Below are positions 25,636 through 64,000 of a stretch of 64,000 nucleotides of DNA, piece after piece. Under the pieces are notes generated by a model. That model saw nothing but the letters and a program-made list of their open reading frames with translations, searched no databases and was not told where the DNA came from. How positions within the stretch are numbered: the first letter of the stretch is position 1; each line of letters opens with the position of its first letter. A program made the position numbers and the translations under genes. The stretch is from Chloroflexus sp. Y-396-1 (GTDB taxonomy: Bacteria; Chloroflexota; Chloroflexia; Chloroflexales; Chloroflexaceae): positions 3,070,881-3,134,880 of the forward strand of contig NZ_KI911784.1 in the NCBI RefSeq assembly GCF_000516515.1, read 5' to 3'.

Positions 25636-26442
25636 ATGATCACGCCACGGATTCCTGCCAACAAAATCTGGATCGCCGATGAAGCGATCTACTACACCCT
25701 CGCCCGACCGGCACTCAAACGGAGCTTTGATCACGTCTGGTTTGCTCAATACGGTCCTCGTCCTGATCCACGTCGTGGCCCATATATCTTTTACCTTAAT
25801 CATTCAGCGTGGTGGGATGGGTACATGTTGATGCTGATTCATCGTGCGATCATGCGTCGCGCCTTCGATAGCTACCTGATGATGGAAGAACGCCAACTGC
25901 GTGCTTACCGCTTCTTTACCTGGTGCGGTGCATTTTCTATCGAACGGCGTGATCCCGACGATGCCCAGCGTGCGCAGATCTATGCCGCAAATCTGTTGCG
26001 CGAACGGCGTGATCGCGCCCTCTACATCTTTCCGCAGGGGCGAATCGAAGCAAACGACTACCGCCCCCTCACCATTTACCCAGGCATTGCCCGGATTGCG
26101 GCGCTAGTTGGCGATGTAACCCTCTGCCCAATTGCGCTGCGCTATGAATTCCTCGGTCAGCAATGGCCGCACGCCTTTGTTCAAGTTGGCCCACCTCACC
26201 CACCGGCCAGCCGGGACGATATTGAAGCGATCCGGAGTGATGTGGCTGCCCGCCTGACGGCTGCGGTTGACAAACTGCGAGCCGATGTGATTGAGCAGCG
26301 GTTGGGACGATTCCAGCCGCTGCTCAACGGACGCTGGGGGATTGACCGCACCTGGGATGCGGTTAGAGGTTGGTTTCGACGACGCGGCGCAGACGACGGG
26401 CCAGCCGCGGCAGCAGCCAATCGCCTGCGAGCACGAGCATAA
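25636..26442 (+). CDS. PlsC-like lysophospholipid/carotenoid acyltransferase
   Basis: The 268-aa protein has the acyltransferase motif I NHSAWWD (H-x4-D), a downstream ERRDP segment and an FPQGRI segment equivalent to motif III (FPEGT-like), so it should transfer acyl groups to a hydroxyl. The start is ATG 25636; an earlier TTG overlaps the previous stop. The 3' end overlaps the convergent cruF gene by 80 bases. Carotenoid glucoside esters of green bacteria need a CruD-type acyltransferase; the neighbourhood makes that possible, but ordinary phospholipid synthesis fits equally well. Confidence 0.8.
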   Translation: MITPRIPANKIWIADEAIYYTLARPALKRSFDHVWFAQYGPRPDPRRGPYIFYLNHSAWWDGYMLMLIHRAIMRRAFDSYLMMEERQLRAYRFFTWCGAFSIERRDPDDAQRAQIYAANLLRERRDRALYIFPQGRIEANDYRPLTIYPGIARIAALVGDVTLCPIALRYEFLGQQWPHAFVQVGPPHPPASRDDIEAIRSDVAARLTAAVDKLRADVIEQRLGRFQPLLNGRWGIDRTWDAVRGWFRRRGADDGPAAAAANRLRARA

Positions 26443-27250
26443 TGAGACCACCAATGAACGCCGGCAGAACCTGACCACGGGCCAGATTGACTACCACAAA
26501 CATCGTGAGGTTGGTGAGATAAAGCATCGGTGGCAGCCAATTCATGAACGGTTGAGGCGTATGACCACGGCGAGCGGCTATCCGGCGCTGATGTAACAGT
26601 ATCCACGACAGAATCAGGCTGGTGATCCACCAGGCAACAAAATTCGATGCCGGGATACCGTAATAAAAACCACTTTCGGCATTCGACCAGACCCAGTAAC
26701 GATTGATGTAGACGGCAAATGGTTCAATGGTGACATCAAGCAAGAGTGCGAATGAGGCTGCAGTTAGCACTCGTGTTGAATGAAGCTGACGGTCATCTAT
26801 CGGCTTCCCATCACGGTTGAGAATACGTTCGGCCACACCGACTGCCGCCACCACGATAAGCAACCATGCGAACGGAATAGCCAGTGGAACAACACCCAGC
26901 ACTTGCGGTTGGAGCACATCGGTGTAGGTGTAGCTTCCAAACGGGAAACCGGTTGTTGCTCCAATATGTTCTACGGCCCACGAGATCACCAGAATCAAAC
27001 CGGCAGCCGTTGCCCCCCACCAGCGATACCGTACCGTCAACCAAAACCCCATCAGCGCTCCCTGTAAAATCAGGAGCGCGCCGCCCATCCATGTGCCCCA
27101 TACTGGCACTTTATCAAGTGCTACCAAGACAATCGCAAACGGATAAATGAAGAGATACAGCGTAAATAATGCAACAACAGTTCGACGTAAGTTCTGCAGA
27201 ACAGACTGATCGGAAAGCATAGAGTAACAGACCCCAGACAAAAGGGTCAT
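26363..27250 (-). CDS. cruF: Carotenoid biosynthesis protein, CruF-like 1',2'-hydratase
   Basis: The protein is up to 295 aa and has about seven hydrophobic helices. The signature EHIGATTGFPFGSYTYTD and the later DVTIEPFAVYINRYWVW and GIPASNFVAWW match the CruF/DUF422 family, which adds water across the end double bond of gamma-carotene-type carotenoids. In Chloroflexus-type organisms this would lead to hydroxy-gamma-carotene and its glucoside ester. A second in-frame ATG at 27220 is equally plausible; neither start has a strong ribosome-binding site. The gene is convergent with the acyltransferase and their ends overlap. Confidence 0.85.
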   Translation of the reverse strand: MTLLSGVCYSMLSDQSVLQNLRRTVVALFTLYLFIYPFAIVLVALDKVPVWGTWMGGALLILQGALMGFWLTVRYRWWGATAAGLILVISWAVEHIGATTGFPFGSYTYTDVLQPQVLGVVPLAIPFAWLLIVVAAVGVAERILNRDGKPIDDRQLHSTRVLTAASFALLLDVTIEPFAVYINRYWVWSNAESGFYYGIPASNFVAWWITSLILSWILLHQRRIAARRGHTPQPFMNWLPPMLYLTNLTMFVVVNLARGQVLPAFIGGLIMLVLAGDWLLPRLARRLRRVVETNL

Positions 27251-27878
27251 ACCATTCGGTAGCCCCTATAGTTGATTATAGATTCGCTTTCATGGCCTGT
27301 CAAAGCCATAGCACATAGCCGTTCAGGTCGAAGAACAAAAGAGAGAGGAGAGGAACGGGAGCAGCAGAGGCGAGACTCTACCTTCTCAGTGCGTGCAGCG
27401 GTGCACAGCTTCCCGTTCCGCCAGCGGTCTTCCTATGCCACACTTCGCACGTCGTTCATGTCGTCAGCGTATCGTGGGGCGGGTTCTCAACCCGTCCGCC
27501 GCCTCGCCGTAGTCTGAAGCACCTGCCTTTTGCCCCACACGTAGGAACGGGTTTTCAACCCAGACCCTGCAAGCGTTAGGTCAAAAGGTGATGATGGCTC
27601 GATGCGCCAACCGGAAGATTCTACCCGCATATCGAAGAACGCGGGCCGGAGGCCTGCGCACCCAGGCGTTCGAGGAAGACCCGAAGCTGAAAACTCCTTC
27701 TCCGACCCGCATCAGTGTCCCCCTGGGAACGCAGGCTCCGGTATGCACTCTGCGCTCGGCCCATTAGCATGCCGGTGAGGGAGGGCTGGTGCCGACCGCT
27801 GCTTCACACCTCTCTTCACTCTGCAAAATCACCGTATAATTGCTTTCACATCTCATTTCTCATTCAGGATGTTCACGT
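27251..27878. other. Intergenic with short repeat fragments and a possible -10 box
   Basis: About 630 bases between divergent genes. It includes a GGCGGGTTCTCAACCCG palindrome near 27478 and a segment near 27637-27667 (AACGCGGGCC... GCGCACCCAG) shared with the tandem repeat at 55571-55852. TATAAT at 27835-27840 lies 38 bases upstream of the CARF gene, but no clear -35 box is visible. Confidence 0.45.
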
Positions 27879-29330
27879 ATGAACGCAATCTTGATCTGTA
27901 ATGTCGGCGGACGTGACGTTGCAAGTGAGGTCTTCCCAAAAGACAACATCGGCGAACGGACATGGGCAGAAACTATTCTGACCCGCTACCACGAACTGTA
28001 CGCCACGTTGCGGTTGCCAATCATCGGCAAAGCCCTGCATTACCTAGCCGAACGTCGGATAGCCCTTGATCACGTGATTCTGATCGCGTCCGATCAACCG
28101 CCACCGCCTGACAGAAATGCCCAATTCTGGCAGAGCGACACCATCCACTCGGCAGCGATCATTCGTCGCCTACTCAGTGATGGGCATACGCCCTACCCGG
28201 CATTACCCACCGATCGGATCACCATCTGGACTATTCGCGACGAGCGTGACCGCGGCTGTGACCCATCAGATTACGACCTGACACTGCGCTTCCTTGAACG
28301 TCAGTTGACCAAATTACAGCACCAATACCCTCAACACACTGCTTTCTTAGAGGTAACCGGCGGCACACCGGCAATGACAACCGGTCTACTGATTGCCGGC
28401 ACCGAAGTGTTTGGCAGTCGCGCTGAGGTTCTCTCCATCCACCCCGCGCAAGAAACACCGATTGCCCTCAACACCGGCAAAAGATTGCTGGCAACGCCAC
28501 TCCGTGCTACCCTGCGCTCAAACGCAGCTACCTATGCCTATGCTGCCGCTGCCCGTACCTTCCTCGAACAAGAGGCAATTATTACCGACCGTCTCGATCC
28601 GATTGCAGCTAGCCTGATCGCTCCCCTGCTAGATTATGCCCATCATCGCTTCAATTTCGCCTTTGCCAACGCCCGTAAGGCATTGGAAAAGATACACGAT
28701 GCTGGGCCGTGGCAAACCGAACTGGACGCACTACGAGCCCAGGTTACCAGCCCCGACCGTTGCTCACTCCTGGCGGAAGTCGTGCATGGCGCTGCTGCCC
28801 GCTATGAGATTGGCCTCTACGCCGATTTTCTCGTTCAGGTCGTGCGGTTTGAAGAGAATCTGCTCCGCTATCTCTGCCTGTTACAAGGCGTCGAATTTCG
28901 CAACCGACGCCGAAATACCGACCCCGATGGCCCCTATCTCACCCGTGAATGGCTGCAACAACAGCCGTTCACTTTGTCTCGCGACCGTGACCGGCAACGC
29001 GATTTGCCGGTCGACCGCTCGGTTTTGCGTGAACTGATCGGCCAGCTTCTTAATCCATCTGATCTCCACCAACAAGCATTACTCCAGGCGATTGATAAGC
29101 TCGGCGCGCTGGTTAAACGGCGGAACGAACTGATCCATCACCTGGAAGGCGTCCAGAAGATCGGGTTAGCGCGGGCCTTCGCCGGGCCGCATGCCAGTTC
29201 GACCGCTGCCGACCAGATCGTACCTCATCTACAACAGCTCTACAAAGCGGTCTGCAAGCAACCACTACCGCCATCACCGTACCAACAGATCAATCACCTG
29301 CTAGATCGCTTGCTGCGAAGCAAGGGGTGA
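27879..29330 (+). CDS. CRISPR-associated CARF-HEPN ribonuclease (Csm6/Csx1-like)
   Basis: The 483-aa protein has an N-terminal Rossmann-like CARF domain (about 1-185). Its ring-nucleotide-binding signature is LEVTGGTPAM (Thr160-Gly-Gly-Thr163). The C-terminal alpha-helical HEPN region contains KRRNELIH, an R-x4-H RNase motif near residues 415-420. Proteins of this plan bind cyclic oligoadenylate made by Cas10 of type III systems and then degrade RNA. The ATG at 27879 follows AGGATG by 7 bases. It precedes cas6-cas1-cas2 on the same strand by about 400 bases. No cas10 is in the window, so the activator must come from another locus. Confidence 0.8.
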   Translation: MNAILICNVGGRDVASEVFPKDNIGERTWAETILTRYHELYATLRLPIIGKALHYLAERRIALDHVILIASDQPPPPDRNAQFWQSDTIHSAAIIRRLLSDGHTPYPALPTDRITIWTIRDERDRGCDPSDYDLTLRFLERQLTKLQHQYPQHTAFLEVTGGTPAMTTGLLIAGTEVFGSRAEVLSIHPAQETPIALNTGKRLLATPLRATLRSNAATYAYAAAARTFLEQEAIITDRLDPIAASLIAPLLDYAHHRFNFAFANARKALEKIHDAGPWQTELDALRAQVTSPDRCSLLAEVVHGAAARYEIGLYADFLVQVVRFEENLLRYLCLLQGVEFRNRRRNTDPDGPYLTREWLQQQPFTLSRDRDRQRDLPVDRSVLRELIGQLLNPSDLHQQALLQAIDKLGALVKRRNELIHHLEGVQKIGLARAFAGPHASSTAADQIVPHLQQLYKAVCKQPLPPSPYQQINHLLDRLLRSKG

Positions 29331-29587
29331 GCGGCAAGAGCCGACCCGAAAAATTCTGTTGTAGGAACCGGCGATCAGCAAAGCTCGGCGTCCATCCGGT
29401 CGGGGGGCGCAGCGCTGCCATGCCCCGACCGTTCCACCGGGTAAGATTGCAAGAGGATTCGAGATTCCCAGCAAACAAACGATAGACACGAGCGATAAAC
29501 ATCATCCAGATGCGTAAAATCCCATTGCCCATATCCCTCAGACCCCTACAAGCACTACTCCCCTTAGCCCTCCGCTTGCGCTACCCC

Positions 29588-29634
29588 TTTCCCCCACTTC
29601 CCCCCTGCAAGCGGGGGGGAGGGAAGGGGGGGAA
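29588..29634. repeat. C-run/G-run hairpin
   Basis: C-rich (CCCCCACTTCCCCCC) and G-rich (GGGGGGGAGGGAAGGGGGGG) arms pair around TGCAAGC. The G-rich strand could also fold as a quadruplex. It lies between the CARF gene and the cas6 promoter; the CTCCGCTTGCGCTACCCC start recurs near 55540. Confidence 0.55.
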
Positions 29635-29637
29635 CAA

Positions 29638-29666
29638 TTGCCTCGCCGGTTTATATCGCATATACT
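29638..29666 (+). promoter_or_regulatory. Probable promoter of cas6-cas1-cas2
   Basis: TTGCCT (29638-29643), a 17-base spacer and TATACT (29661-29666) lie 63 bases before the cas6 start. Spacing and hexamers fit the main sigma factor. Confidence 0.5.
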
Positions 29667-29728
29667 ATACTCTCGTAACAGGAATATGGTACCTTAACAA
29701 CGTAGACACTATCGATAGGGGATTCGCA

Positions 29729-30592
29729 ATGCCACAGGCCATCGTTTTCACTATTCGCCCACTTGCCACTGCCCAAGTAGCCGGTTATCTCAATCGGGCT
29801 GCCTACGCCGCCATTCTTCGCCTCATTCAGCGTGCCGATCCAGCACTGGCAGCCCGCATCCACGACGACAATGGACGTAAACCACTTACCGTCTCAAACG
29901 TCTGGGAACTCGGTGGCGAACCAAAGGTGATCGTTGAACCTGAGCGGAACTACCACTTGCGGGTAACCCTGCTCAGCCCCGAACTCGAACACATCGCTGC
30001 CGGATGGACACCGGCTGCACTTGAGCCACTCGATCTCGATGGCATTCCCTGGCGGGTCATTGCTCGCGCTGACCGCCACACCGACCATACATGGGCCGGA
30101 AGCACCACCTACCAAGAGCTGGTCATGCCGCTTCTCAGCCGGCCTGACCATCTGCCCACCGTCTGGACCTTTCAATTCGCATCGCCAACCACCTTTCGCC
30201 AGCGTGGTATCAACATTCCTATTCCCTTACCAGACCTGGTCTTCGGCAGCCTGCTCGACCAGTGGAATGCTTCATCAGAGCTGGCGCTACCAGAGGAAGT
30301 ACGCCGATACGCTGCTGAATGTCTGGTCATCAACCGGTACGAGCTACGCAGTGTTGCCAGTCCAACTAGTGGTGGCGTCATTCAAATCGGCGCTGTTGGC
30401 CGATGCAGCTTTCGCAGCATCAATCACGACCGCTATTGGCGAGCCTGCATCGACGTCCTGGCCCGCTTTGCCTTTTACAGCGGTATCGGCGCCGGTACCA
30501 CCCGTGGCTTTGGACAGGCCCGTCTCCTCACCAAACCAACCGACCAGCACCACCGTGAGGCGAACAACGATGGCAACACTTTATCTGATTGA
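29729..30592 (+). CDS. cas6: CRISPR repeat endoribonuclease Cas6
   Basis: The 287-aa protein ends in the glycine-rich RNA-binding loop typical of Cas6 (FYSGIGAGTTRGFGQARLL). The N-terminal ferredoxin-like half includes RPLATAQVAGYLNRAAYAAIL, followed by YHLRVTLLSPE and PSPTTFRQRG-like strand segments. Cas6 cuts the CRISPR transcript below the repeat hairpin, leaving the 8-base ATTGAAAC handle. The ATG at 29729 has GGGG about 8 bases upstream; the frame is open for 73 more codons without homology. Its end overlaps cas1 by 23 bases. Confidence 0.9.
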   Translation: MPQAIVFTIRPLATAQVAGYLNRAAYAAILRLIQRADPALAARIHDDNGRKPLTVSNVWELGGEPKVIVEPERNYHLRVTLLSPELEHIAAGWTPAALEPLDLDGIPWRVIARADRHTDHTWAGSTTYQELVMPLLSRPDHLPTVWTFQFASPTTFRQRGINIPIPLPDLVFGSLLDQWNASSELALPEEVRRYAAECLVINRYELRSVASPTSGGVIQIGAVGRCSFRSINHDRYWRACIDVLARFAFYSGIGAGTTRGFGQARLLTKPTDQHHREANNDGNTLSD

Positions 30593-31589
30593 ACAGGGCG
30601 CAGAAATCGGCTGTGACGGCGAACGGATCATCGTTCGCCGTACCGGTGAAATCATCGGCAGCGTGCCGCTTGTCAAAATTGAAGACATTGTGATCTTCGG
30701 CAACATCGGCATTAGCACACCTGCCATCAAACGACTATTAGATCGCGGTATTGAAGTCACCTTTATGACGATCGATGGTGCATATCAGGGACGGCTGATT
30801 GGGCAGACCACTGCCCACGTTGCGTTGCGCCAGGCCCAATACACTTACGCCACCGACAGCGAACGATCGCTCAGACTTGCGCAGAGCTTCGTTGAAGGCA
30901 AACTCCGCAACCAGCGCGTACTCCTGCAACGCTTCAGCCGCAACCGCGCCTCACCGCCACCGGAAGCTATTGCCGCGGCTGACGACCTCGACGCTTACAT
31001 CAAGCGTGTCGGACGCACCACCCGTCACAGTGCGCTGCTTGGTGTGGAGGGCAGCGCTACCGCCCGTTACTTCGCCGGCTTACGCAGTTTAATCGGGCCA
31101 GAATGGAATTTTCGCAGTCGGCAGCGGCGCCCGCCACCCGATCCGGTCAACCTATTGCTGTCCTTCGGCTACACACTTCTTGCCCACAAAGTTCTCGGCG
31201 CCGTGCAGGCAGCCGGGTTCGATCCCTACTTGGGATTCCTACACAGCCTCGACTATGGACGGCCCTCGCTGGCCCTCGATCTCATGGAAGAGTTCCGGCC
31301 ACTGCTCGTCGACTCACTAGTCGTGCGCGTCTGCAATGACGGTCGGCTGCGGCCCGAACACTTTCAGCCTGGCGACGAAGAGCGTCCGGTGACCATCACC
31401 GACGAAGGCAAGCGTGCTTTTCTCACCGCCTTTGAAGAGCGGATGCACACCGAATCCACCCATCCCGAAGGTGCCGACAGTGGGCCGGGAAAAGTTCCCT
31501 ACAGTCGCTGCATTATCTTGCAAGCCCGTCGCCTTGCGCGCGTCATTCGCGGCCAACAAGAGCGTTATGAACCGTTCACGGCACGTTGA
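30570..31589 (+). CDS. cas1: CRISPR integrase Cas1
   Basis: The 339-aa protein has all Cas1 marks: N-terminal beta domain with LVKIEDIVIFGNIGIS, the metal ligand Glu160 in LLGVEGSATARYF, His225 in LGFLHSLDYGRPSLALDLMEEFRP, and acidic Asp237/Glu240. It integrates new spacers with Cas2. The start ATG overlaps the end of cas6 and the stop is 20 bases before cas2, so the three genes are translationally close. No reverse transcriptase fusion is present. Confidence 0.97.
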   Translation: MATLYLIEQGAEIGCDGERIIVRRTGEIIGSVPLVKIEDIVIFGNIGISTPAIKRLLDRGIEVTFMTIDGAYQGRLIGQTTAHVALRQAQYTYATDSERSLRLAQSFVEGKLRNQRVLLQRFSRNRASPPPEAIAAADDLDAYIKRVGRTTRHSALLGVEGSATARYFAGLRSLIGPEWNFRSRQRRPPPDPVNLLLSFGYTLLAHKVLGAVQAAGFDPYLGFLHSLDYGRPSLALDLMEEFRPLLVDSLVVRVCNDGRLRPEHFQPGDEERPVTITDEGKRAFLTAFEERMHTESTHPEGADSGPGKVPYSRCIILQARRLARVIRGQQERYEPFTAR

Positions 31590-31609
31590 GCAGACAGTGG
31601 AGCGACACA

Positions 31610-31891
31610 ATGTTCTACCTCATCAGCTACGACATAAGTATCGATCAACGGCGACTCAAAGTTGCCCACCTTCTTGAAGGCTACGGACAGCGTGTGCTTG
31701 AGAGCGTCTTTGAATGCGATCTCGAACCGACAGCCTATCGTCAGCTCCGCCAGAAACTCAGCCGCCTGATCAAAACAGACGAAGGTGACCGCCTGCGCAT
31801 CTACCAAATCTGCAACACCTGTCGATGCCAAATAGAAGTCATCGGTGAGGGACCGCCACCAGAAACGAGTCCAGACATCTACATCTTCTAA
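31610..31891 (+). CDS. cas2: CRISPR adaptation protein Cas2
   Basis: The 93-aa protein starts MFYLISYDI, with the conserved early Asp after a beta strand, and has LLEGYGQRVLESVFECDL and DRLRIYQICNTC, all typical of Cas2. The ATG at 31610 has GGAG 6-9 bases upstream. It is followed by a 173-base leader and then the first repeat, the usual order for adaptation genes next to the leader end of an array. Confidence 0.95.
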   Translation: MFYLISYDISIDQRRLKVAHLLEGYGQRVLESVFECDLEPTAYRQLRQKLSRLIKTDEGDRLRIYQICNTCRCQIEVIGEGPPPETSPDIYIF

Positions 31892-32064
31892 GCGCAGCGC
31901 GAGGTTCCGGCTCACAAACGGCGCGGGATCGTATCAGAATGCAGAAAAACGGCACTTTTCCATTTGCCAATCCGCGAAAACTCTTTACACATTCACGTTA
32001 ACAGACCCTCGCCGCGCAAACAGCACGATATAGCCGCTTGCAAAGCGGTCGCAGATGTGGTATC
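31892..32064 (+). promoter_or_regulatory. CRISPR leader
   Basis: This 173-base non-coding segment separates cas2 from the first repeat. It includes an A-rich part (GCAGAAAAACGG) and a GATATAGCC stretch. Repeat orientation (ATTGAAAC at the 3' end) and repeat decay at the far end both place the leader here. No unambiguous promoter hexamers were found. Confidence 0.65.
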
Positions 32065-35000
32065 TTCAAAAAACCAAAATCCCCGAGAGGGGATTGAAAC
32101 CGGTCTGTTCGCTCCAACAGACCGGCAAGGAAGGAGAACAACAGCTTCAAAAAACCAAAATCCCCGAGAGGGGATTGAAACATGGAAACACCGTCGATGG
32201 GCTGATCGGGTGCATGGGTGCTTCAAAAAACCAAAATCCCCGAGAGGGGATTGAAACGACCACTGGGAGTGCCTCCGTGCCGCTCCCGGTTGTCAGAACT
32301 TCAAAAAACCAAAATCCCCGAGAGGGGATTGAAACCGATAACTGCTCTTCCACTTGACCGCTACCATCCTCAGCTTCAAAAAACCAAAATCCCCGAGAGG
32401 GGATTGAAACTCACCTCGTACCATCCGACGGCCGGGCCGGTGATGGTATACTTCAAAAAACCAAAATCCCCGAGAGGGGATTGAAACCCGAGGCCATCCG
32501 GTCGGTTGTGAAGGGGGATACAACCATGCTGCTTCAAAAAACCAAAATCCCCGAGAGGGGATTGAAACTCCCACCCTTGCCAAGTGAGGTACCGGCGACC
32601 ACGCGAACCTTCAAAAAACCAAAATCCCCGAGAGGGGATTGAAACCCCATCGTTCTTCCCGTAGTACTGCCACTCACATGCTTCCACTTCAAAAAACCAA
32701 AATCCCCGAGAGGGGATTGAAACCCGCCACCACCGATAGCGCAGCACCCAGATGATGAGTGCTTCAAAAAACCAAAATCCCCGAGAGGGGATTGAAACGG
32801 GTACTGATCGAATGCCCGGACGGCTCATTGATCGATTACTTCAAAAAACCAAAATCCCCGAGAGGGGATTGAAACTCGCAACGGGCATTGTCCCAGGCGC
32901 AACAATTGCAATTACTTCAAAAAACCAAAATCCCCGAGAGGGGATTGAAACGGACAAGTGACAGTAAAAACTCGAAATCGTCAAATGTTGTCACTTCAAA
33001 AAACCAAAATCCCCGAGAGGGGATTGAAACTCTGATCTAGCAGTGCCTGCAACACCGAACGTTGGTAATCGCTTCAAAAAACCAAAATCCCCGAGAGGGG
33101 ATTGAAACCTACAATGAGGACACCGACCTGTCGCTGCGGTGTCTGAAGGCTTCAAAAAACCAAAATCCCCGAGAGGGGATTGAAACATCATGACTTCCGG
33201 GTGGTGACCGGCACGACCGGCTGCCCCCCTTCAAAAAACCAAAATCCCCGAGAGGGGATTGAAACGCTTCGAGATGGAACTTATGGGCATTCCCGGTTAC
33301 GACCGCAGCTTCAAAAAACCAAAATCCCCGAGAGGGGATTGAAACGCTTGCGCATACAGCTCACGTGCAAGCCGGACGGGGTCGATGAGCTTTCAAAAAA
33401 CCAAAATCCCCGAGAGGGGATTGAAACGAAGGCAGACGATGAACGATCCGCCGACGCCATCGCGGTCGAGCCTTCAAAAAACCAAAATCCCCGAGAGGGG
33501 ATTGAAACACTTCCGTCTGCGCAACGCACCCCTATCCTCCGCTTAATGCTTTCAAAAAACCAAAATCCCCGAGAGGGGATTGAAACACTACTTGCATTGC
33601 TGCCTCCTATCTTTGGTATGCTATCCTTCAAAAAACCAAAATCCCCGAGAGGGGATTGAAACTCGATGACGACTGCGACGACTCGCGCGGGCCGTTTGTC
33701 AGTTACTTCAAAAAACCAAAATCCCCGAGAGGGGATTGAAACGCTTGCGCATACAGCTCACGTGCAAGCCGGACGGGGTCGATGAGCTTTCAAAAAACCA
33801 AAATCCCCGAGAGGGGATTGAAACGAAGGCAGACGATGAACGATCCGCCGACGCCATCGCGGTCGAGCCTTCAAAAAACCAAAATCCCCGAGAGGGGATT
33901 GAAACACTTCCGTCTGCGCAACGCACCCCTATCCTCCGCTTAATGCTTTCAAAAAACCAAAATCCCCGAGAGGGGATTGAAACATATGGCCGGTATATCC
34001 GCTGCTCAAACGTCGGCTCACTTGTTTCAAAAAACCAAAATCCCCGAGAGGGGATTGAAACAAGAATAATATTGTTTCAGTGCTCAACGATGAGCCGATT
34101 GCTTTCAAAAAACCAAAATCCCCGAGAGGGGATTGAAACTCGGGAGCAATGCGCCATAGGGTCATGTCGATGATCGATTTCAAAAAACCAAAATCCCCGA
34201 GAGGGGATTGAAACTGGAACACCGCACGAATAAAAGGGGGAAGAGACTTTGATTTTTTTCAAAAAACCAAAATCCCCGAGAGGGGATTGAAACCCATTTC
34301 TCGTGGCGGTGCTGGAGTACATCGAGTCGGAGCCTTTCAAAAAACCAAAATCCCCGAGAGGGGATTGAAACTGGTAAATCCTGCCCGCTCGACGAGCACG
34401 TAGTAGCTCAGATTTTCAAAAAACCAAAATCCCCGAGAGGGGATTGAAACTCATCGTACCCATCGCCATCCGCGATGTAGAGTGCGCCTTTGTTTTCAAA
34501 AAACCAAAATCCCCGAGAGGGGATTGAAACAGCCAAAACCCGCACGTGTGCGGCTGAGGAAACTCGTCCAATTTCAAAAAACCAAAATCCCCGAGAGGGG
34601 ATTGAAACTTAACCTTGCCGCGTTCATCCCCAACTTTTTGTTGTTGTGTTTCAAAAAACCAAAATCCCCGAGAGGGGATTGAAACGCTCCGGTGCCGGCC
34701 GATTCACCAGCGGGATATACCGCTCTACTTTCAAAAAACCAAAATCCCCGAGAGGGGATTGAAACGAGTACGAACCGACCCCCCCTATCATGCATCTCCC
34801 TTCCTTTCAAAAAACCAAAATCCCCGAGAGGGGATTGAAACTCCCTGATGAGCGCGACGCCGGTAATGATGATGAGCAGTGCGCTTTCAAAAAACCAAAA
34901 TCCCCGAGAGGGGATTGAAACCACGCTTCCGCAACGCTGCCGTCTGCGCAGCGTACCCCTATCCGCTTCAAAAAACCAAAATCCCCGAGAGGGGATTGAA

Positions 35001-38000
35001 ACTTCAGGCGGCATTGGATTCTTGACGACAACATTTTGAAATTCTTCAAAAAACCAAAATCCCCGAGAGGGGATTGAAACTGTTCACGATTGTTGTTGCT
35101 CTGTGTTTGTTTGTTTTGCTTCAAAAAACCAAAATCCCCGAGAGGGGATTGAAACGCGCAGGAACTGCTCCCACGCAGGCAACATGTGTTTATACGTCGC
35201 TTCAAAAAACCAAAATCCCCGAGAGGGGATTGAAACTTACGATCTCACGACTCTACGCAGGCGCAGCCTTCCGCACTTCAAAAAACCAAAATCCCCGAGA
35301 GGGGATTGAAACTTCTTTGTGCAACCGTGTTCCTAAATACGATTGCGCGCGCCTTCAAAAAACCAAAATCCCCGAGAGGGGATTGAAACTTCTTTGTGCA
35401 ACCGTGTTCCTAAATACGATTGCGCGCGCCTTCAAAAAACCAAAATCCCCGAGAGGGGATTGAAACGGGCCATGTCACGGTAGGGCAGGTGGAGTATGTG
35501 GGCAGCGCTTCAAAAAACCAAAATCCCCGAGAGGGGATTGAAACCCGTTTCATTGCGCCTCCTTACCTGACCTGCAATGCAGCGCTTCAAAAAACCAAAA
35601 TCCCCGAGAGGGGATTGAAACTCGGTCTGGTCAACGATAATGATGCGCAGCTCCCCTTGTGCCGCTTCAAAAAACCAAAATCCCCGAGAGGGGATTGAAA
35701 CTTGTATCATACGCAAACACTCCTGGAGTACAACCAATTATATCTTCAAAAAACCAAAATCCCCGAGAGGGGATTGAAACTTGTATCATACGCAAACACT
35801 CCTGGAGTACAACCAATTATATCTTCAAAAAACCAAAATCCCCGAGAGGGGATTGAAACGGAGCAGATCGGAATTGCCGGTGCCGTCATTGCCTACCGCA
35901 CTTCAAAAAACCAAAATCCCCGAGAGGGGATTGAAACTTTGATCCAGCCCGCAGTTTGGCAACCGGAATACACATTTCACTTCAAAAAACCAAAATCCCC
36001 GAGAGGGGATTGAAACAAGGAACACCATCCCCATCCGGTAGGAGGGATCGACCAGGAACTTCAAAAAACCAAAATCCCCGAGAGGGGATTGAAACTCAGG
36101 ATGTTGCCTCGGCGGGCCGAGGTCGGCTCGATGACGGGCTTCAAAAAACCAAAATCCCCGAGAGGGGATTGAAACACACACTCCCAGTCGTGTTGTTGCG
36201 TAACCGGTGGGACTTCACGCTTCAAAAAACCAAAATCCCCGAGAGGGGATTGAAACTGAGATAGTGGCGGGTAATCTTGCGGCAAAGTACGATCTCCTTC
36301 AAAAAACCAAAATCCCCGAGAGGGGATTGAAACTGCCGGTACAGCACTGCAAGAGGCCGGGCTGTCGTTTGACTTCAAAAAACTAAAATCCCCGAGAGGG
36401 GATTGAAACGTGTCTTAACCGCTGACACCAGCCCCCCGATGACGGTTTGGCTTCAAAAAACCAAAATCCCCGAGAGGGGATTGAAACTCATGTACTCATG
36501 GCGTGTGACACATTGCCATTCCAACCCATCTTCAAAAAACCAAAATCCCCGAGAGGGGATTGAAACAGATCGGATCATCCCCTGGTCACTATGCCACGGC
36601 AATGGTTTCTTCAAAAAACCAAAATCCCCGAGAGGGGATTGAAACCAACGGCATACACCGACAATACAACTGCAAGTGCAACTGTGCTTACTTCAAAAAA
36701 CCAAAATCCCCGAGAGGGGATTGAAACAGATCGGATCATCCCCTGGTCACTATGCCACGGCAATGGTTTCTTCAAAAAACCAAAATCCCCGAGAGGGGAT
36801 TGAAACACACTCCCTCATACCACAGTTCGACGGCCTGGCCGTCGAACCTTCAAAAAACCAAAATCCCCGAGAGGGGATTGAAACGTCGTCGTGCCCGGAA
36901 GGTCGTCGTGTCAGGGATGGCTTATTGCTTCAAAAAACCAAAATCCCCGAGAGGGGATTGAAACCGGTACACTCTTTTCCTGGAACTCGACTACAATCGC
37001 TGCCGTACCGCTTCAAAAAACCAAAATCCCCGAGAGGGGATTGAAACGTGGATAATTGTGGATAGCGTGTGGATAACGTATGGGATGAATGTGCTTCAAA
37101 AAACCAAAATCCCCGAGAGGGGATTGAAACTTACTTGAGACGGGGTATTTCAATAGCTGGTGGGCGAGTCCGCCCACTTCAAAAAACCAAAATCCCCGAG
37201 AGGGGATTGAAACACAATGATAACACTCATCATGACTATCCTTCCTTGATACGCAGCGCTTCAAAAAACCAAAATCCCCGAGAGGGGATTGAAACAGATA
37301 TCGATGTCGTTGAGCAGCTCAGCAGCGTCATCGAGCACCTTCAAAAAACCAAAATCCCCGAGAGGGGATTGAAACTCTGCTGCTCCATCGGCGGTGGAGG
37401 ATTGGCGAGCAATCTCGCTTCAAAAAACCAAAATCCCCGAGAGGGGATTGAAACAAGATCGGAGATGAGGGAAGAGCTGTACACGATAATGATGTCCATC
37501 ACTTCAAAAAACCAAAATCCCCGAGAGGGGATTGAAACTCGAGTAGTACTCTTCGTGCAATAGTGAGTTCACTGCTTGTCCACTTCAAAAAACCAAAATC
37601 CCCGAGAGGGGATTGAAACCAACTACTGATGGCTCGCCATTACACAGCACCAGCGGGGCATTGGCTTCAAAAAACCAAAATCTCCGAGAGGGGATTGAAA
37701 CCGGTGAACGAACGTCTACCACCGGCACAGACGTCCGGCCAGCTTCAAAAAACCAAAATCCCCGAGAGGGGATTGAAACAAAAAAATCCTGCCGTGCACT
37801 ATGCACGGCAGGGAGGTCATAGCTTCAAAAAACCAAAATCCCCGAGAGGGGATTGAAACACGCATCAACGATTCTTGTCCACCGGACGCGACATACGTCC
37901 ACTTCAAAAAACCAAAATCCCCGAGAGGGGATTGAAACTCACCATGGTCTTCCGCCATTCCGAACCCACTGCTCTTTTTGGCTCTTCAAAAAACCAAAAT

Positions 38001-40793
38001 CCCCGAGAGGGGATTGAAACAACAAGCAGTGCAGCGCCGTCTGCCTATACCGAGTTGGTGCTGTCTTCAAAAAACCAAAATCCCCGAGAGGGGATTGAAA
38101 CCACGACCATCAACGAAAACGCCATGCCGTCGCTCACATATCCAACTTCAAAAAACCAAAATCCCCGAGAGGGGATTGAAACACACTCCCTCATACCACA
38201 GTTCGACGGCCTGGCCGTCGAACCTTCAAAAAACCAAAATCCCCGAGAGGGGATTGAAACTTAATCCCGATACGCCGCCGGATCCGATGATACACATCGC
38301 CGCTTCAAAAAACCAAAATCCCCGAGAGGGGATTGAAACCTGTGTGACCTCGAGTTGTACGAGCACATTGTGCACGTGCAACTTCAAAAAACCAAAATCC
38401 CCGAGAGGGGATTGAAACTCAACATCAGACGCATTCATCCGGAGAAAAACCTTTTGGAGGCTTCAAAAAACCAAAATCCCCGAGAGGGGATTGAAACCGA
38501 TACTCGACGGGGTTGCCAACCGGATGTCGAACACAGATCGCTTCAAAAAACCAAAATCCCCGAGAGGGGATTGAAACTCGGGAGATACGCGCACACAACC
38601 TGGACAACAGGCGGATCACTTCAAAAAACCAAAATCCCCGAGAGGGGATTGAAACTGAAGGTCAAAAGCAGCCGATACCAAAGTACGGTATAAGGCTTCA
38701 AAAAACCAAAATCCCCGAGAGGGGATTGAAACGCCGTGTCCAGCAGCACAAGGCTGCCTGACACAGCTCCATTGCTTCAAAAAACCAAAATCCCCGAGAG
38801 GGGATTGAAACCTCTTACTATCCTATCCTCCTAACTACCGACGCTCACGAGCCACTTCAAAAAACCAAAATCCCCGAGAGGGGATTGAAACCTGGGTACG
38901 ATTGTAACAGGGTTGTTGCGTAATTACCAACCCGACTCCCTTCAAAAAACCAAAATCCCCGAGAGGGGATTGAAACTTCGACGGGTACGGGTCGAGAGAG
39001 GATATAGCTTCAAATACCGCCTTCAAAAAAACAAAATCCCCGAGAGGGGATTGAAACGCTTGTCCCTCATCCTTCTTTTCCAGACGCATTACAGCATCTG
39101 GCTTCAAAAAACCAAAATCCCCGAGAGGGGATTGAAACTGGATGGCTTGGAATGTACTCAACCCGTATCCTGCTGATACGGCTTCAAAAAACCAAAATCC
39201 CCGAGAGGGGATTGAAACCCCAAAATGTGCACCTTTCGCCCCGCGTAAGCAGAAATCGCTTCAAAAAACCAAAATCCCCGAGAGGGGATTGAAACTTGGG
39301 TTTCTCCGAGTAACATTCGTGATAGTGGTCAGATGGCTTCAAAAAACCAAAATCCCCGAGAGGGGATTGAAACCCCTTACCGTCGATAATGGCCCATCTT
39401 ATTGATTGCTGATCCGCTTCAAAAAACCAAAATCCCCGAGAGGGGATTGAAACCCCTATCGCCATCCGGATATATCGCGGATGCGCACAGGTGTTGCTTC
39501 AAAAAACCAAAATCCCCGAGAGGGGATTGAAACAGCATGACATTCTTGCTCAATACCTCTCCTATTTGCATGACGGCTTCAAAAAACCAAAATCCCCGAG
39601 AGGGGATTGAAACTAACAGCCTGTACCGGCAAGCCCATCTGGCCGAGCCGTTCGACTTCAAAAAACCAAAATCCCCGAGAGGGGATTGAAACCCAAATCG
39701 GGGCTGAACGTTGACGAACTCATACAGTTGCTTCAAAAAACCAAAATCCCCGAGAGGGGATTGAAACCGGTTGGTTGCGGGAGCGGTTCAATGCGGCTCT
39801 GCGTATCACTTTTCAAAAAACCAAAATCCCCGAGAGGGGATTGAAACCACATTGTGCACGTGCAGCTCAGTTTGGAGCTTGCCCAGTTTTTTCAAAAAAC
39901 CAAAATCCCCGAGAGGGGATTGAAACGCGCAGCTCGGCAATCTGCTTTGTGAGCATTGTCGTATCCCTTTCAAAAAACCAAAATCCCCGAGAGGGGATTG
40001 AAACGGGGTTGGTGATCGACCCGATTACCCTGCTCGATCCGATGCACATTTCAAAAAACCAAAATCCCCGAGAGGGGATTGAAACTGATGCAGTCAGGCG
40101 GCGTTCCAGTTCGGCAAGGTATTCATCGTTTTCAAAAAACCAAAATCCCCGAGAGGGGATTGAAACATATGTACGCCTGGCTCGACCGATATGGCGTCCG
40201 CAGACCGCTCATTTCAAAAAACCAAAATCCCCGAGAGGGGATTGAAATTCCAACCCAACACCCGACCTCGCCGCGTCCGCGATGATCCGCTTTCAAAAAA
40301 CCAAAATCCCCGAGAGGGGATTGAAACTTAGTCGCAAAGTTGCGACCGAAATATGCCACTGTTGTTGACTTCAAAAAACCAAAATCCCCGAGAGGGGATT
40401 GAAACGAATGAACAGACACCGGCACCGAGGTCTTCCCGTGGCATCTGTTCAAAAAACCAAAATCCCCGAGAGGGGATTGAAACTTCTTGACGGCGGCTGT
40501 TGCCGACTTGAATCAGAAATCGCTTCAAAAAACCAAAATCCCCGAGAGGGGATTGAAACCGCACCATTATCTGACCATTGTGCATACCGTTCTCCGGTCT
40601 CTTCAAAAAACCAAAATCCTCGAGAGGGGATTGAAACATCAGCGCCGCGACATCGACGCAGTCGTAGCTGTGTACGCCTTCAAAAAACCAAAATCCCCGA
40701 GAGGGGATTGAAACGTTGCCATCTCAGGTACGGTGATGAAGATCGCCGGATCATGGCTTCAAAAAACCAAAATCCCCGAGAGGGGATTGAAAC
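32065..40793 (+). CRISPR. Large CRISPR array, 111 repeats counted
   Basis: The 36-base repeat begins TTCAAAAAACC, folds as AATCCCC-GAGA-GGGGATT with a GAGA tetraloop, and ends ATTGAAAC. This is the type I/III-like Cas6 handle, so transcription runs left to right. Manual counting gives 111 repeats and 110 spacers of about 41-46 bases (mean period 79). The base before the repeat is mostly C in the first part and often T elsewhere. Variant repeats occur near 36375, 37680, 39025, 40245 and 40618, mostly in the leader-distal half. Several spacers are duplicated. Confidence 0.98.
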
Positions 40794-41346
40794 GAGCGAG
40801 TATACACGTATCCCTTATATGGTATCCGTCGGTGATGGTTCTGTGCCCACTGTCGCGTCAATGTACTCCTTCCGCTGTGGCGGAAAGGGCCAGGAGGACC
40901 ACGATCTCCAGTTGGGCTTGGTCATGCGGGGACCTGGTGGCTTCACGATACCTGCTTCCTCCCCATGTCTGGTGGATCGACAATACCTGATTGTCGGAGG
41001 GAAGAGAAGGAATTCGCCGAAGATGACACAGCCAACAACGACATAGGGATGGGTGGCAGGAAGGAACGTTCTCACCGTGGACCGATTCACCGATGCGTCG
41101 GGATGGGAGGCACACGGGGAGGAAAGAAGGAACACACGGCGATGGTGGATATCTTGCCGCCTCCGGTGCTCACCGATATGATCCATCGCCGTGCCTATCT
41201 GCCGGTGATCTGCTGGTACGGAAGGAGCGATGGATGGCAGGATGTCGCATAGGGGTGTTGGTACAATACGGATCGAGAAGTCCGATGTGGGCATGGTATG
41301 ATACAACAGAAAGCGCCATAATGAGATTCACCGTGGAGGGTATGTT
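40794..41346. other. Start of the inter-array island, non-coding
   Basis: About 550 bases after the last repeat of array 1. No recognisable gene. TATGAT with an upstream TG (41297-41302) may be the -10 element for the lipoprotein gene; the -35 region is poor. Confidence 0.4.
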
Positions 41347-42090
41347 ATGCGACACATCAGGATGTTGTACGTGGTCTTGCTCGTTGTCCTCGTTGTCCTG
41401 GCCGGATGTAGTACCGGGATATCAGCACCGGTACCGTCACCAGCACCCGATCAATCGTCGTTGGCGGTACCATCCGACAGCAGTCTGCCGTCGGTAACGG
41501 TCACTGCTGTGGTTCGCGAAACGACATCTGCAACGGTACCGACGGAGATCGTTCCTGTACCATCGGTGGCGACCGATACGGCTGTTGACGATTCGTATCT
41601 ACCCACGGGAACACCGACGACAACATCGGATACGGTGGTCGGTCGTCGTCCAACCCCGATCCCTACGGTTTCTGTACTCTATGCTCCTCCGGTTCCCAAC
41701 GATGTGGTACTTCCGGAATACGATCCCGATGTCAAACAAATGATGGAGACTATGGTGCGATGTCACTTTCCTACCGCGACCTATGATCCCCAACTCCATC
41801 GAGATGTCATGGAGGATATAGCCCGTCGTTTTCTGCACGGAATGACCTCGGATGAATACCTGTTGGCCGTTCCGTACTACGTCGATCGTGGGCTGAAGAT
41901 GGAATTTATATCCATCGACGGCGAGAAGCTGCGTAAGGCTGTTCAACAGCGATGGTCATGCGATGAGATTCTATCCCAAGATGCGATACAGGTGGACGAC
42001 ACGGTGACGAAGGAAGAGCCGTCGGTCATTGCGCTGTTTCCCCTAGATGAAGTATACGGAACGATCCTCGCCATGCTTGCCTACGAATAG
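41347..42090 (+). CDS. Putative lipoprotein with Ser/Thr/Pro-rich tether
   Basis: The 247-aa protein has a signal peptide with a lipobox (VVLAGCS, Cys about residue 20). A region of about 90 residues rich in Ser, Thr, Val and Pro follows, then a globular C-terminal part (about 120-247) with EYDPDVKQMMETMVRCHFP and MTSDEYLLAVPYYVDRGL. GGAGGG lies about 6 bases upstream of the ATG. No family is recognised. It lies between the two CRISPR arrays and is followed by two strong inverted repeats. Its job in relation to CRISPR, if any, is unknown. Confidence 0.7.
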   Translation: MRHIRMLYVVLLVVLVVLAGCSTGISAPVPSPAPDQSSLAVPSDSSLPSVTVTAVVRETTSATVPTEIVPVPSVATDTAVDDSYLPTGTPTTTSDTVVGRRPTPIPTVSVLYAPPVPNDVVLPEYDPDVKQMMETMVRCHFPTATYDPQLHRDVMEDIARRFLHGMTSDEYLLAVPYYVDRGLKMEFISIDGEKLRKAVQQRWSCDEILSQDAIQVDDTVTKEEPSVIALFPLDEVYGTILAMLAYE

Positions 42091-42097
42091 CAGTGGT

Positions 42098-42171
42098 GGT
42101 GATCGCCATCCTGCCGAAGGGGGATACGGTATTGTACATCGGCTTGCGGGATGGGGAGGATGGCGATCACC
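42098..42171. repeat. 15-base inverted repeat after the lipoprotein gene
   Basis: GGTGATCGCCATCCT (42098-42112) and its exact complement (42157-42171) flank 44 bases. It begins 8 bases after the stop codon. Confidence 0.6.
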
Positions 42172-42198
42172 GATGCCAACCGATGGGAGACGCCCGAT

Positions 42199-42229
42199 CC
42201 AACGGCGCTGCACGGTGCAGCGCCGTTGG
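42199..42229. terminator. Perfect GC-rich hairpin
   Basis: CCAACGGCGCTGCAC pairs perfectly with its complement around a single G, a 31-base near-cruciform. Probably a transcription end for the lipoprotein gene, although only a short T-rich stretch follows. It could also be a protein-binding palindrome. Confidence 0.5.
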
Positions 42230-42465
42230 TATTCCGGATGTTTATCGTGAGAAGACGAGATTCCTTCGGTATCGCTAATAGATCGATTCCCGTGATGCCT
42301 CGTGTGGAGGATCGTGTTCGTCGGATGTCTACAATAGCCGATTCGGGAAGGTTCTGAGGATCCTGTCCGGATCATGTAGAGGTACAACCTTCTGGTTGGA
42401 ATGGTGTGTGTGTCGATACCCATGTTCGGTGTGCCGGTAGGGAATGATGTCGGTGCAGCGAGAAG

Positions 42466-42665
42466 GTGCGCAACAGACCGTCGGTTCTCCTGGGAGAAGA
42501 GGAACGTATCCGTACTGCGGTCATCCTACAAGCAGCTATGCAGTGGCGGGATACTGCCGAGATGGTACGCCCATACCTACGGATGGTGCACACCGATCCC
42601 ACCATCCCGGATGAGGTACTCCACCTTCTGAGCAAAACCAGATACCCCCTAGCCTGACCGAGGAC
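42466..42665 (+). pseudogene. Frameshifted 5' part of the HEAT-like gene
   Basis: This frame encodes EEERIRTAVILQAAMQWRD and PDEVLHLLSKTRYP, helix-pair segments like those of the gene that follows, and ends in a stop just after a CCCCC run (42645-42649). Re-reading one C, or one extra C, would join it to PSLTEDMIAFARSLL in the next frame. It may be a true mutation, a sequencing miss or a programmed shift. Confidence 0.5.
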
Positions 42666-44027: not shown

Positions 44028-44168
44028 CCGGATAGCGTACCGGTCGGTGTGGCCAGCACATGATGATTTGGATCGGTGAATCGCATCGTTCCGGATTGCG
44101 AAGGAACGCACGAGCGTGCACAAGACGGTACCGTGCGCGTCGGACCGCTCCCCCTATCCTCTAGACTC

Positions 44169-44835
44169 TTCAAAAAACCAAAATCCCCGAGAGGGGATTG
44201 AAACTCATCTGTGAGGCAATCTGTGGCGTATAGATTCCGGGAAGCTTCAAAAAACCAAAATCCCCGAGAGGGGATTGAAACCAAAAATAAGCGACAGCAG
44301 CGCCCCAACGTGTAAGTTGTTTGCCTTCAAAAAACCAAAATCCCCGAGAGGGGATTGAAACCCGGAGATCGAGTGTGGATTCCCAACTGTCACAGCGACA
44401 CGTTCCCTTCAAAAAACCAAAATCCCCGAGAGGGGATTGAAACTTGAGATGTTGGTGGTTCGCGGGGCAATAGTTGCGCTCCACTTCAAAAAACCAAAAT
44501 CCCCGAGAGGGGATTGAAACGTATCGGGAACGATCTGCGCCAACGCATCGGATACGACGGAACCTTCAAAAAACCAAAATCCCCGAGAGGGGATTGAAAC
44601 AAGGCATGCACGGCGTGTCGGCGTACGGCAACGGATGGTGATGAGAGCTTCAAAAAACCAAAATCCCCGAGAGGGGATTGAAACCGATGCGCATCCCTGC
44701 GCATCCCCAATGCGCCCATGCGCATCCGCTTCAAAAAACCAAAATCCCCGAGAGGGGATTGAAACCCTCTTTCTCACGACGATCCGTCACCGTCACGCAT
44801 CCCTTCAAAAAACCAAAATCCCCGAGAGGGGATTG
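44169..44835 (+). CRISPR. Second CRISPR array, 9 repeats, last one truncated
   Basis: Repeat sequence and orientation are identical to the large array. Nine repeats and eight spacers were counted; there is no leader-like A-rich segment before the first repeat. The last repeat keeps the hairpin but ends at GATTG, losing AAAC, and runs straight into the truncated pilin-like gene. It is best read as a detached trailing part of the same ancestral array. Confidence 0.95.
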
Positions 44836-44838
44836 TGA

Positions 44839-45279
44839 GGTTGGAAGTTGGTCATCGGGATCTTTCTCTCGCTTGCCATCCTGACCATCGGGATGTTCCA
44901 AATGATCCTGGTGGCCAACGATACCCACCGCATTGCCGCCCGCGTCGCCGAGTACGTCTCGGTCACCGGAACGGCACCGCAGACGATCACGATCACCGTC
45001 GGATCGGACCGATCATCATGCCAACAATCGCACTGCATGACCATTACCGACATCGTCCAAAAATATGCCCGACAATCGGCAACATTGCGTAGTCGCGATC
45101 AAACGATCCGTGTTGCCATTAACTGCACGGCAAACCAGCGGGGCTACTGCCAGCGCTATACCGTTGCAACCGTCGTGGTGCAGGCCGATGTTCGGTTATG
45201 GGTTCCCCCGCTCCTCCCCCTGCGCGACCCCATTGCCGGTGTCGCCCGGGTCGGAACGGTGATGCAACAAGAGCGCTGA
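44839..45279 (+). pseudogene. 5'-truncated TadE-like pilin gene at the array border
   Basis: The frame reads WKLVIGIFLSLAILTIGMFQM, a partly complete membrane segment, then NDTHRIAARVAEYVS and a small soluble domain with paired Cys, like TadE-type minor pilins. In-frame upstream there is a stop (44836-44838) directly after the truncated CRISPR repeat, so the normal N-terminus is missing. A TTG at 44848 could start translation. Followed after 36 bases by a second Tad-like gene, suggesting the remains of an operon. Confidence 0.6.
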
Positions 45280-63860: not shown

Positions 63861-63870
63861 CTTGCTATCC

Positions 63871-63907
63871 CCTGCCGGTACTGTCTCCTAGTACTGGCAG
63901 GTGTTTT
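63871..63907 (+). terminator. Terminator of the 1031-aa secreted protein gene
   Basis: CCTGCCGGTACT and AGTACTGGCAGG form a stem with one mismatch and a 7-base loop, followed by TGTTTT. It starts 11 bases after the stop codon. Confidence 0.7.
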
Positions 63908-63927
63908 ACCCTACGGCTATACTACGC

Positions 63928-63960
63928 AAAGACACCATGGCGTACTGCCCTGGTGTCTTT
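63928..63960. terminator. Second hairpin near the window end
   Basis: AAAGACACCA and TGGTGTCTTT pair perfectly around 13 bases. A- and T-rich ends on both sides would let it work in either direction. Confidence 0.5.
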
Positions 63961-64000
63961 GTGTTGTTGTGTAGAAGATCAGGAAACCGCATGTACAAAA

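What the first reader, a model, noticed from the sequence alone, without database searches (positions are those of the whole stretch)
27879..31891. CARF-HEPN nuclease paired with adaptation genes but no interference complex
A Csm6/Csx1-like protein (TGGT CARF signature, R-x4-H HEPN motif) sits with cas6-cas1-cas2 and over 100 spacers, yet no cas10, cas7, cas5, cas8 or cas3 lies in 64 kb. CARF-HEPN effectors are known to need cyclic oligoadenylate from Cas10. Either a type III complex elsewhere serves this array, or this protein responds to another signal.
Basis: partly seen in the sequence, partly recalled or inferred. Interest (0 to 1): 0.65.

Follow-up and report, generated by a model that had tools for sequence, protein, structure and literature searches.

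The report
Inversion-split type III-A CRISPR locus
The 'missing' CRISPR interference complex is not missing: a complete type III-A complex starts 223 bases past the end of the window, and relatives carry both halves as one contiguous operon that a chromosomal inversion most likely broke apart in this Chloroflexus genome, so the finding is essentially ordinary.

Summary
The genes are as described. A CARF-HEPN protein of the Csm6/Csx1 kind (27879-29330) precedes cas6-cas1-cas2 and 120 CRISPR repeats, and no cas10 or RAMP (cas5/cas7-type) gene lies inside the 64 kb. The puzzle is a window-edge effect. In the same chromosome a complete type III-A operon (cas10 with intact GGDD, csm2, csm3, csm4, csm5 and a second CARF-HEPN gene) begins 223 bp past the window end (window coordinates 64223-71699), on the same strand, with no cas1, cas2, cas6 or array of its own. 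In seven relatives the order cas10-csm2-3-4-5-csm6-csx1-cas6-cas1-cas2 is unbroken on one contig. Where the array could be read, it follows cas2 with nearly the same repeat. Here the operon is cut exactly between csm6 and csx1. The C. aurantiacus-like intergenic spacer between two housekeeping genes is found here as two halves, one left of csx1 and one right of csm6. That is the footprint of a reciprocal exchange (inversion). The protein is therefore most likely an ordinary cyclic-oligoadenylate-activated RNase served by that Cas10. A III-D complex with GGDD elsewhere could also signal. Low interest.

The parts
27220..27312 (.). Left half of an ancestral intergenic spacer (left side of the inversion breakpoint), next to the carotenoid-synthesis gene at 26363-27250
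   Evidence: 91% identical to the left end of the G003 intergenic region whose right end matches window-extrapolated 71740-71851, just after csm6; G005 shows the same
27879..29330 (+). csx1: CARF-HEPN protein of the Csm6/Csx1 kind, VTGGTPAM CARF motif, R415-x4-H420 HEPN motif
29729..30592 (+). cas6, CRISPR RNA-processing endoribonuclease
   Evidence: TIGR01877 4e-20 and PF10040 4e-17, both above cut-off
30570..31589 (+). cas1
   Evidence: PF01867 1e-96; TIGR00287 4e-87
31610..31891 (+). cas2
   Evidence: PF09827 1e-20; TIGR01573 2e-16
31892..32063 (+). Probable leader between cas2 and the first repeat
   Evidence: position and repeat orientation (ATTGAAAC at the repeat 3' end); inferred
32064..40793 (+). 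CRISPR array 1: 111 repeats of CTTCAAAAAACCAAAATCCCCGAGAGGGGATTGAAAC
44168..44839 (+). CRISPR array 2: 9 repeats of the same sequence, same orientation
63861..64000 (+). Upstream region of the type III-A effector operon, which lies just outside the window at extrapolated coordinates: cas10 64223-66367 (GGDD), csm2 66393-66842, csm3 66862-67680, csm4 67681-68793, csm5 68815-70227, csm6 (second CARF-HEPN) 70224-71699
   Evidence: a 27-bp stretch upstream of cas10, starting beyond this window part at about 64045, is 96% identical upstream of cas10 in G001

Best explanation
[quoted passage not shown] Inferred mechanism: the array beside cas2 is transcribed and cut by Cas6, and the crRNAs load the Csm complex encoded just past the window. 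On binding target RNA its Cas10 palm domain (GGDD) makes cyclic oligoadenylates. These bind the CARF domains of both csm6 (outside) and csx1 (inside) and switch on their HEPN RNase sites. Cas1-Cas2 add new spacers. The operon was contiguous (cas10-csm2-3-4-5-csm6-csx1-cas6-cas1-cas2-array) and was broken between csm6 and csx1 by an inversion with its other breakpoint between the carotenoid-synthesis gene and a response-regulator gene. A second inversion would account for the present orientation. Shown: gene content, contiguity in relatives, breakpoint halves. Inferred: biochemistry, expression, number of inversions.
For: Cas10/Csm1 (TIGR02578, 8e-118), Csm2, Csm3, Csm4 and Csm5 all score above their cut-offs in one operon starting 223 bp past the window. 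GGDD is intact. That operon lacks its own array, cas1, cas2 and cas6, while the window half lacks effector genes, so the two are complementary. Seven relatives carry the full cas10-to-cas2 order on one contig and three more carry part of it; in five others cas10 and csx1 hits lie within 8 kb. Relatives' arrays read after cas2 in the genus use repeats one to three bases different. The single G003/G005 intergenic spacer is found here as two halves flanking csx1 and csm6.
Against: No expression or biochemical data. A sigma-70 consensus scan found no promoter upstream of csx1 on the + strand, so its expression after the split is unproven. The structure model was poor (mean pLDDT 45.7), and the HEPN half alone matched no solved HEPN structure by sequence. 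The Cas10 lacks an HD motif, so DNA cleavage by Cas10 is not expected.
Confidence: 0.93

Rival explanations
1. The array and Csx1 are served mainly or additionally by other type III complexes of the same genome (III-D at 498-504 kb, with GGDD; III-C at 1930-1938 kb and 2556-2564 kb), the III-A complex being one of several users.
For: Those loci showed no cas1, cas2 or clear CRISPR array in the stretches read. Thermus thermophilus HB27 is reported to share six arrays between III-A and III-B (PMC7515739). The III-D Cas10 has GGDD.
Against: The III-D locus has its own CARF proteins (a CARF-PDDEXK and a CARF). The contiguous ancestral operon ties this array and Csx1 to the III-A genes. This rival adds to, and does not exclude, the main explanation.
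Confidence: 0.3
2. The adaptation module and Csx1 form a stand-alone unit that answers a signal other than Cas10-made cyclic oligoadenylate.
For: Only the physical separation, and that no shared transcript with cas10 is likely in this genome.
Against: A GGDD-bearing Cas10 of the ancestral partner operon is intact 35 kb away. Every relative with Csx1 examined gene by gene with enough contig has it in the III-A operon.
Confidence: 0.02
3. The split is an assembly error and the locus is really contiguous.
For: Contiguity in all relatives examined with enough contig.
Against: The genome is one 4.89-Mb contig. Both breakpoint junctions carry reciprocal halves of an ancestral spacer, and unrelated genes lie between them. 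Raw reads were not available.
Confidence: 0.05

Closest known systems
Type III-A (Csm) CRISPR-Cas system of Chloroflexus relatives (G003, 5,258,541 bp, a length I recall as that of C. aurantiacus J-10-fl; G005, 4,684,931 bp, as that of C. aggregans DSM 9485; genome names not given by the tool)
   Same: Same genes in the same order within each half, 64-90% protein identity, repeat differing by one to three bases
   Different: In the window's genome the operon is cut between csm6 and csx1, with the two halves exchanged in order and about 35 kb apart
Csm6/Csx1 CARF-HEPN ribonucleases (PADLOC PDLC01814, PDLC01509; TIGR02672)
   Same: N-terminal CARF motif and C-terminal R-x4-H HEPN motif over the full length
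   Different: Scores below the NCBIfam Csm6 cut-off (39 against 150 bits); a lineage-specific subfamily that sits beside a second CARF-HEPN with R-x6-H
Thermus thermophilus HB27 CRISPR set (I-B, I-C, III-A, III-B; PMC7515739)
   Same: Several type I and III systems in one thermophile, with six arrays shared by the two type III systems
   Different: Here the additional type III modules are III-C (two) and III-D, and sharing of the array is untested

Membership tests
[quoted passage not shown]
   TIGR02578 8e-118 (cut-off 170, score 395 bits); YSGGDDLF
[quoted passage not shown]
   All four above NCBIfam cut-offs, consecutive and same strand
[quoted passage not shown]
   No HD in the protein; the profile match starts at position 94 of the Csm1 model
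[quoted passage not shown]
   Split by about 35 kb here; contiguous in seven relatives
Csm6/Csx1 CARF-HEPN ribonuclease | CARF domain with its signature | tested here: met
   VTGGTPAM, V159 and G161-M166 invariant in 13 orthologues; Csm6_CARF Pfam 2e-4, below its cut-off; solved Csm6 6tug 7e-5
Csm6/Csx1 CARF-HEPN ribonuclease | HEPN domain with R-x4-6-H | tested here: met
   R415-x4-H420 invariant; full-length CARF_HEPN profiles. Sequence level only
Csm6/Csx1 CARF-HEPN ribonuclease | HEPN fold in a structure | tested here: inconclusive
   AlphaFold2 with 4 sequences gave mean pLDDT 45.7, C-terminal half mostly below 50
Csm6/Csx1 CARF-HEPN ribonuclease | Cyclic-oligoadenylate-activated RNase | not testable with these tools
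   needs biochemistry

The most novel reading that the evidence does not exclude
After the split, csx1 and the adaptation genes are transcribed independently of cas10 and have become a shared module for several type III complexes (III-A, III-D, III-C) in this genome, changing when the RNase arm is available relative to the Cas10 complex.
Probability: 0.12. Interest if true: 0.35.

Novelty: new member of a known kind. Interest (0 to 1): 0.1.

Why it matters
It removes an apparent exception to the rule that CARF-HEPN effectors depend on Cas10-made cyclic oligoadenylates, and shows how a window edge plus a chromosomal inversion can imitate an orphan effector. It also gives a natural case of a type III operon cut between two CARF-HEPN genes, where independent expression of effector and RNase modules could be studied.

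Tried and rejected
Orphan Csx1 with another signal: rejected once the III-A operon was found and contiguity in relatives was seen. Service by a type I system: rejected as the first choice because the I-C and I-B loci have their own cas1 genes and arrays with different repeats. The HEPN half alone found no solved HEPN structure by sequence. Spacer targets: megablast of the arrays against phage records gave nothing. Relatives in viral contigs: none. The single genome-contig scan gave three Chloroflexus or Chloroflexota contigs already seen among the relatives. The paper search for Chloroflexus with CRISPR, type III and Csm6 gave nothing.

Full report
What was checked. The finding describes a Csm6/Csx1-like gene with cas6, cas1 and cas2 and more than 100 spacers, and no interference genes in 64 kb. 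All of this is in the sequence. The protein at 27879-29330 (483 aa) matches PADLOC CARF_HEPN and Csx1 profiles over its full length (6e-295 and 3e-166) and NCBIfam Csm6 only weakly (5e-10, below cut-off). Its CARF motif VTGGTPAM (residues 159-166) has V159 and G161-M166 invariant, and its HEPN motif R415-N-E-L-I-H420 has R415, N416 and H420 invariant, among 13 orthologues. cas6, cas1 and cas2 are clear by profile. There are 120 repeats in two blocks, 111 at 32064-40793 and 9 at 44168-44839; 91 copies are exactly CTTCAAAAAACCAAAATCCCCGAGAGGGGATTGAAAC and 22 carry one change at the first base. Spacers are 37-48 nt and seven occur twice. The repeat occurs nowhere else in the 4.89-Mb single-contig genome.

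What the window hid. A search of the whole genome for the Cas10 palm2 domain found its best hit 1.5 kb past the window end. Reading on shows a complete type III-A operon on the same strand: cas10 (window-extrapolated 64223-66367), csm2, csm3, csm4, csm5 and a second CARF-HEPN gene (70224-71699). The five Csm subunits score above their NCBIfam cut-offs. Cas10 has YSGGDDLF and no HD motif, and the relatives of the genus that were read also lack an HD motif near the N-terminus. That stretch holds no CRISPR array, cas1, cas2 or cas6. The statement that no interference complex accompanies the array is therefore true only of the 64-kb frame.

Are the two halves one system? In 60 related genomes, csx1 was found in 17 (18 with the window's own) and cas10 in 20. 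Gene-by-gene maps show the unbroken order cas10-csm2-csm3-csm4-csm5-csm6-csx1-cas6-cas1-cas2 on one contig in seven of them: G003, G005, G004, G034, G020, G045 and G053 (in G003 and G005 the stretch spans two fetched pieces of one contig). In the more distant ones the gene in the csm6 position is recognised only as a second CARF-HEPN. Partial runs of the same order lie on short contigs in G001, G002 and G006. In five more (G038, G044, G047, G050, G055) the cas10 and csx1 hits lie within 8 kb of each other, not mapped gene by gene. Where the repeats after cas2 could be read in the genus, they differ from the window's by one to three bases. Genome names are not given; the lengths of G003 (5,258,541 bp) and G005 (4,684,931 bp) are those I recall for C. 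aurantiacus and C. aggregans.

How it came apart. In G003 the housekeeping genes run: orthologues of window 60744 down to 50324, reversed; then 24038, 25139, 25624, 26363; then the response regulator that follows csm6 here (71871). G005 also has 26363 next to 71871. In the window's genome 26363 is followed by csx1, and csm6 is followed by 71871. At DNA level, the one intergenic spacer of G003 is found here in two halves: its left 93 bp at 27220-27312 (91% identity) and its right part at 71740-71851 (80%). G005 shows the same, on the other strand. Both products of one exchange, with breakpoints csm6|csx1 and 26363|71871, are thus present. A second inversion of the block 24038-to-array would give the present orientation; that step is inferred.

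Other CRISPR loci in the genome. Type I-C at about 4.35 Mb and type I-B at about 4.46 Mb have their own cas1 and arrays with different repeats. A III-D locus at 498-504 kb has a GGDD Cas10, a CARF-PDDEXK and another CARF protein. Two III-C loci with csx11 lie at 1930-1938 kb and 2556-2564 kb. No cas1 or clear CRISPR array was seen near the III-C and III-D loci in the stretches read, so they may borrow crRNAs from this array; in Thermus thermophilus HB27 six arrays are shared by III-A and III-B (PMC7515739). This was not tested.

Mechanism. By established knowledge of Csm6 and Csx1 (review PMC9704534), crRNA-guided type III complexes make cyclic oligoadenylates on target RNA, and these activate CARF-HEPN RNases that do not physically associate with the complex. 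Nothing in that scheme requires csx1 to sit beside cas10. The most likely reading is that csx1 here works as in the intact relatives. Not shown: its expression after the split (no sigma-70 consensus promoter on its strand), which cyclic oligoadenylate it binds, and its RNase activity. The structure model was too poor to test the HEPN fold.

Verdict.

Noticed in passing
L036 1-19501 (genome 1922000-1941500): III-C locus whose csx11 (Cas10) appears split into a 226-aa HD part and a 649-aa open frame; a HEPN-domain gene lies inside the operon, and a small gene that looks like a nucleotidyltransferase (by eye, not scanned) lies at its end.
   Followed up: partly
L034 14517-18056 (genome about 502-506 kb): III-D locus with a GGDD Cas10 next to a CARF-PDDEXK (Can2/Card1-like) and a further CARF protein; a third kind of likely cyclic-oligoadenylate effector in this genome.
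   Followed up: partly
40794-44167: The array is interrupted by about 3.4 kb holding a lipoprotein-like ORF (41347-42090) and a 453-aa ORF (42666-44027); neither matches PADLOC, and Pfam gives no significant match.
   Followed up: partly
33228-33984, 35276-35466, 35665-35859, 36451-36884, 38183-38223: Seven spacers occur twice, three of them in a 397-bp tandem duplication, suggesting rearrangement within the array.
   Followed up: no
62454-63529: Long run of 24- and 30-base repeats coding a Pro/Thr/Ser-rich linker in a 1038-aa ORF with a weak autotransporter-like (PATR) repeat match below its cut-off.
   Followed up: no
L093, L094, L096: The intact III-A locus has different neighbouring genes in three Chloroflexus genomes, suggesting it moves within the genus.
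   Followed up: partly
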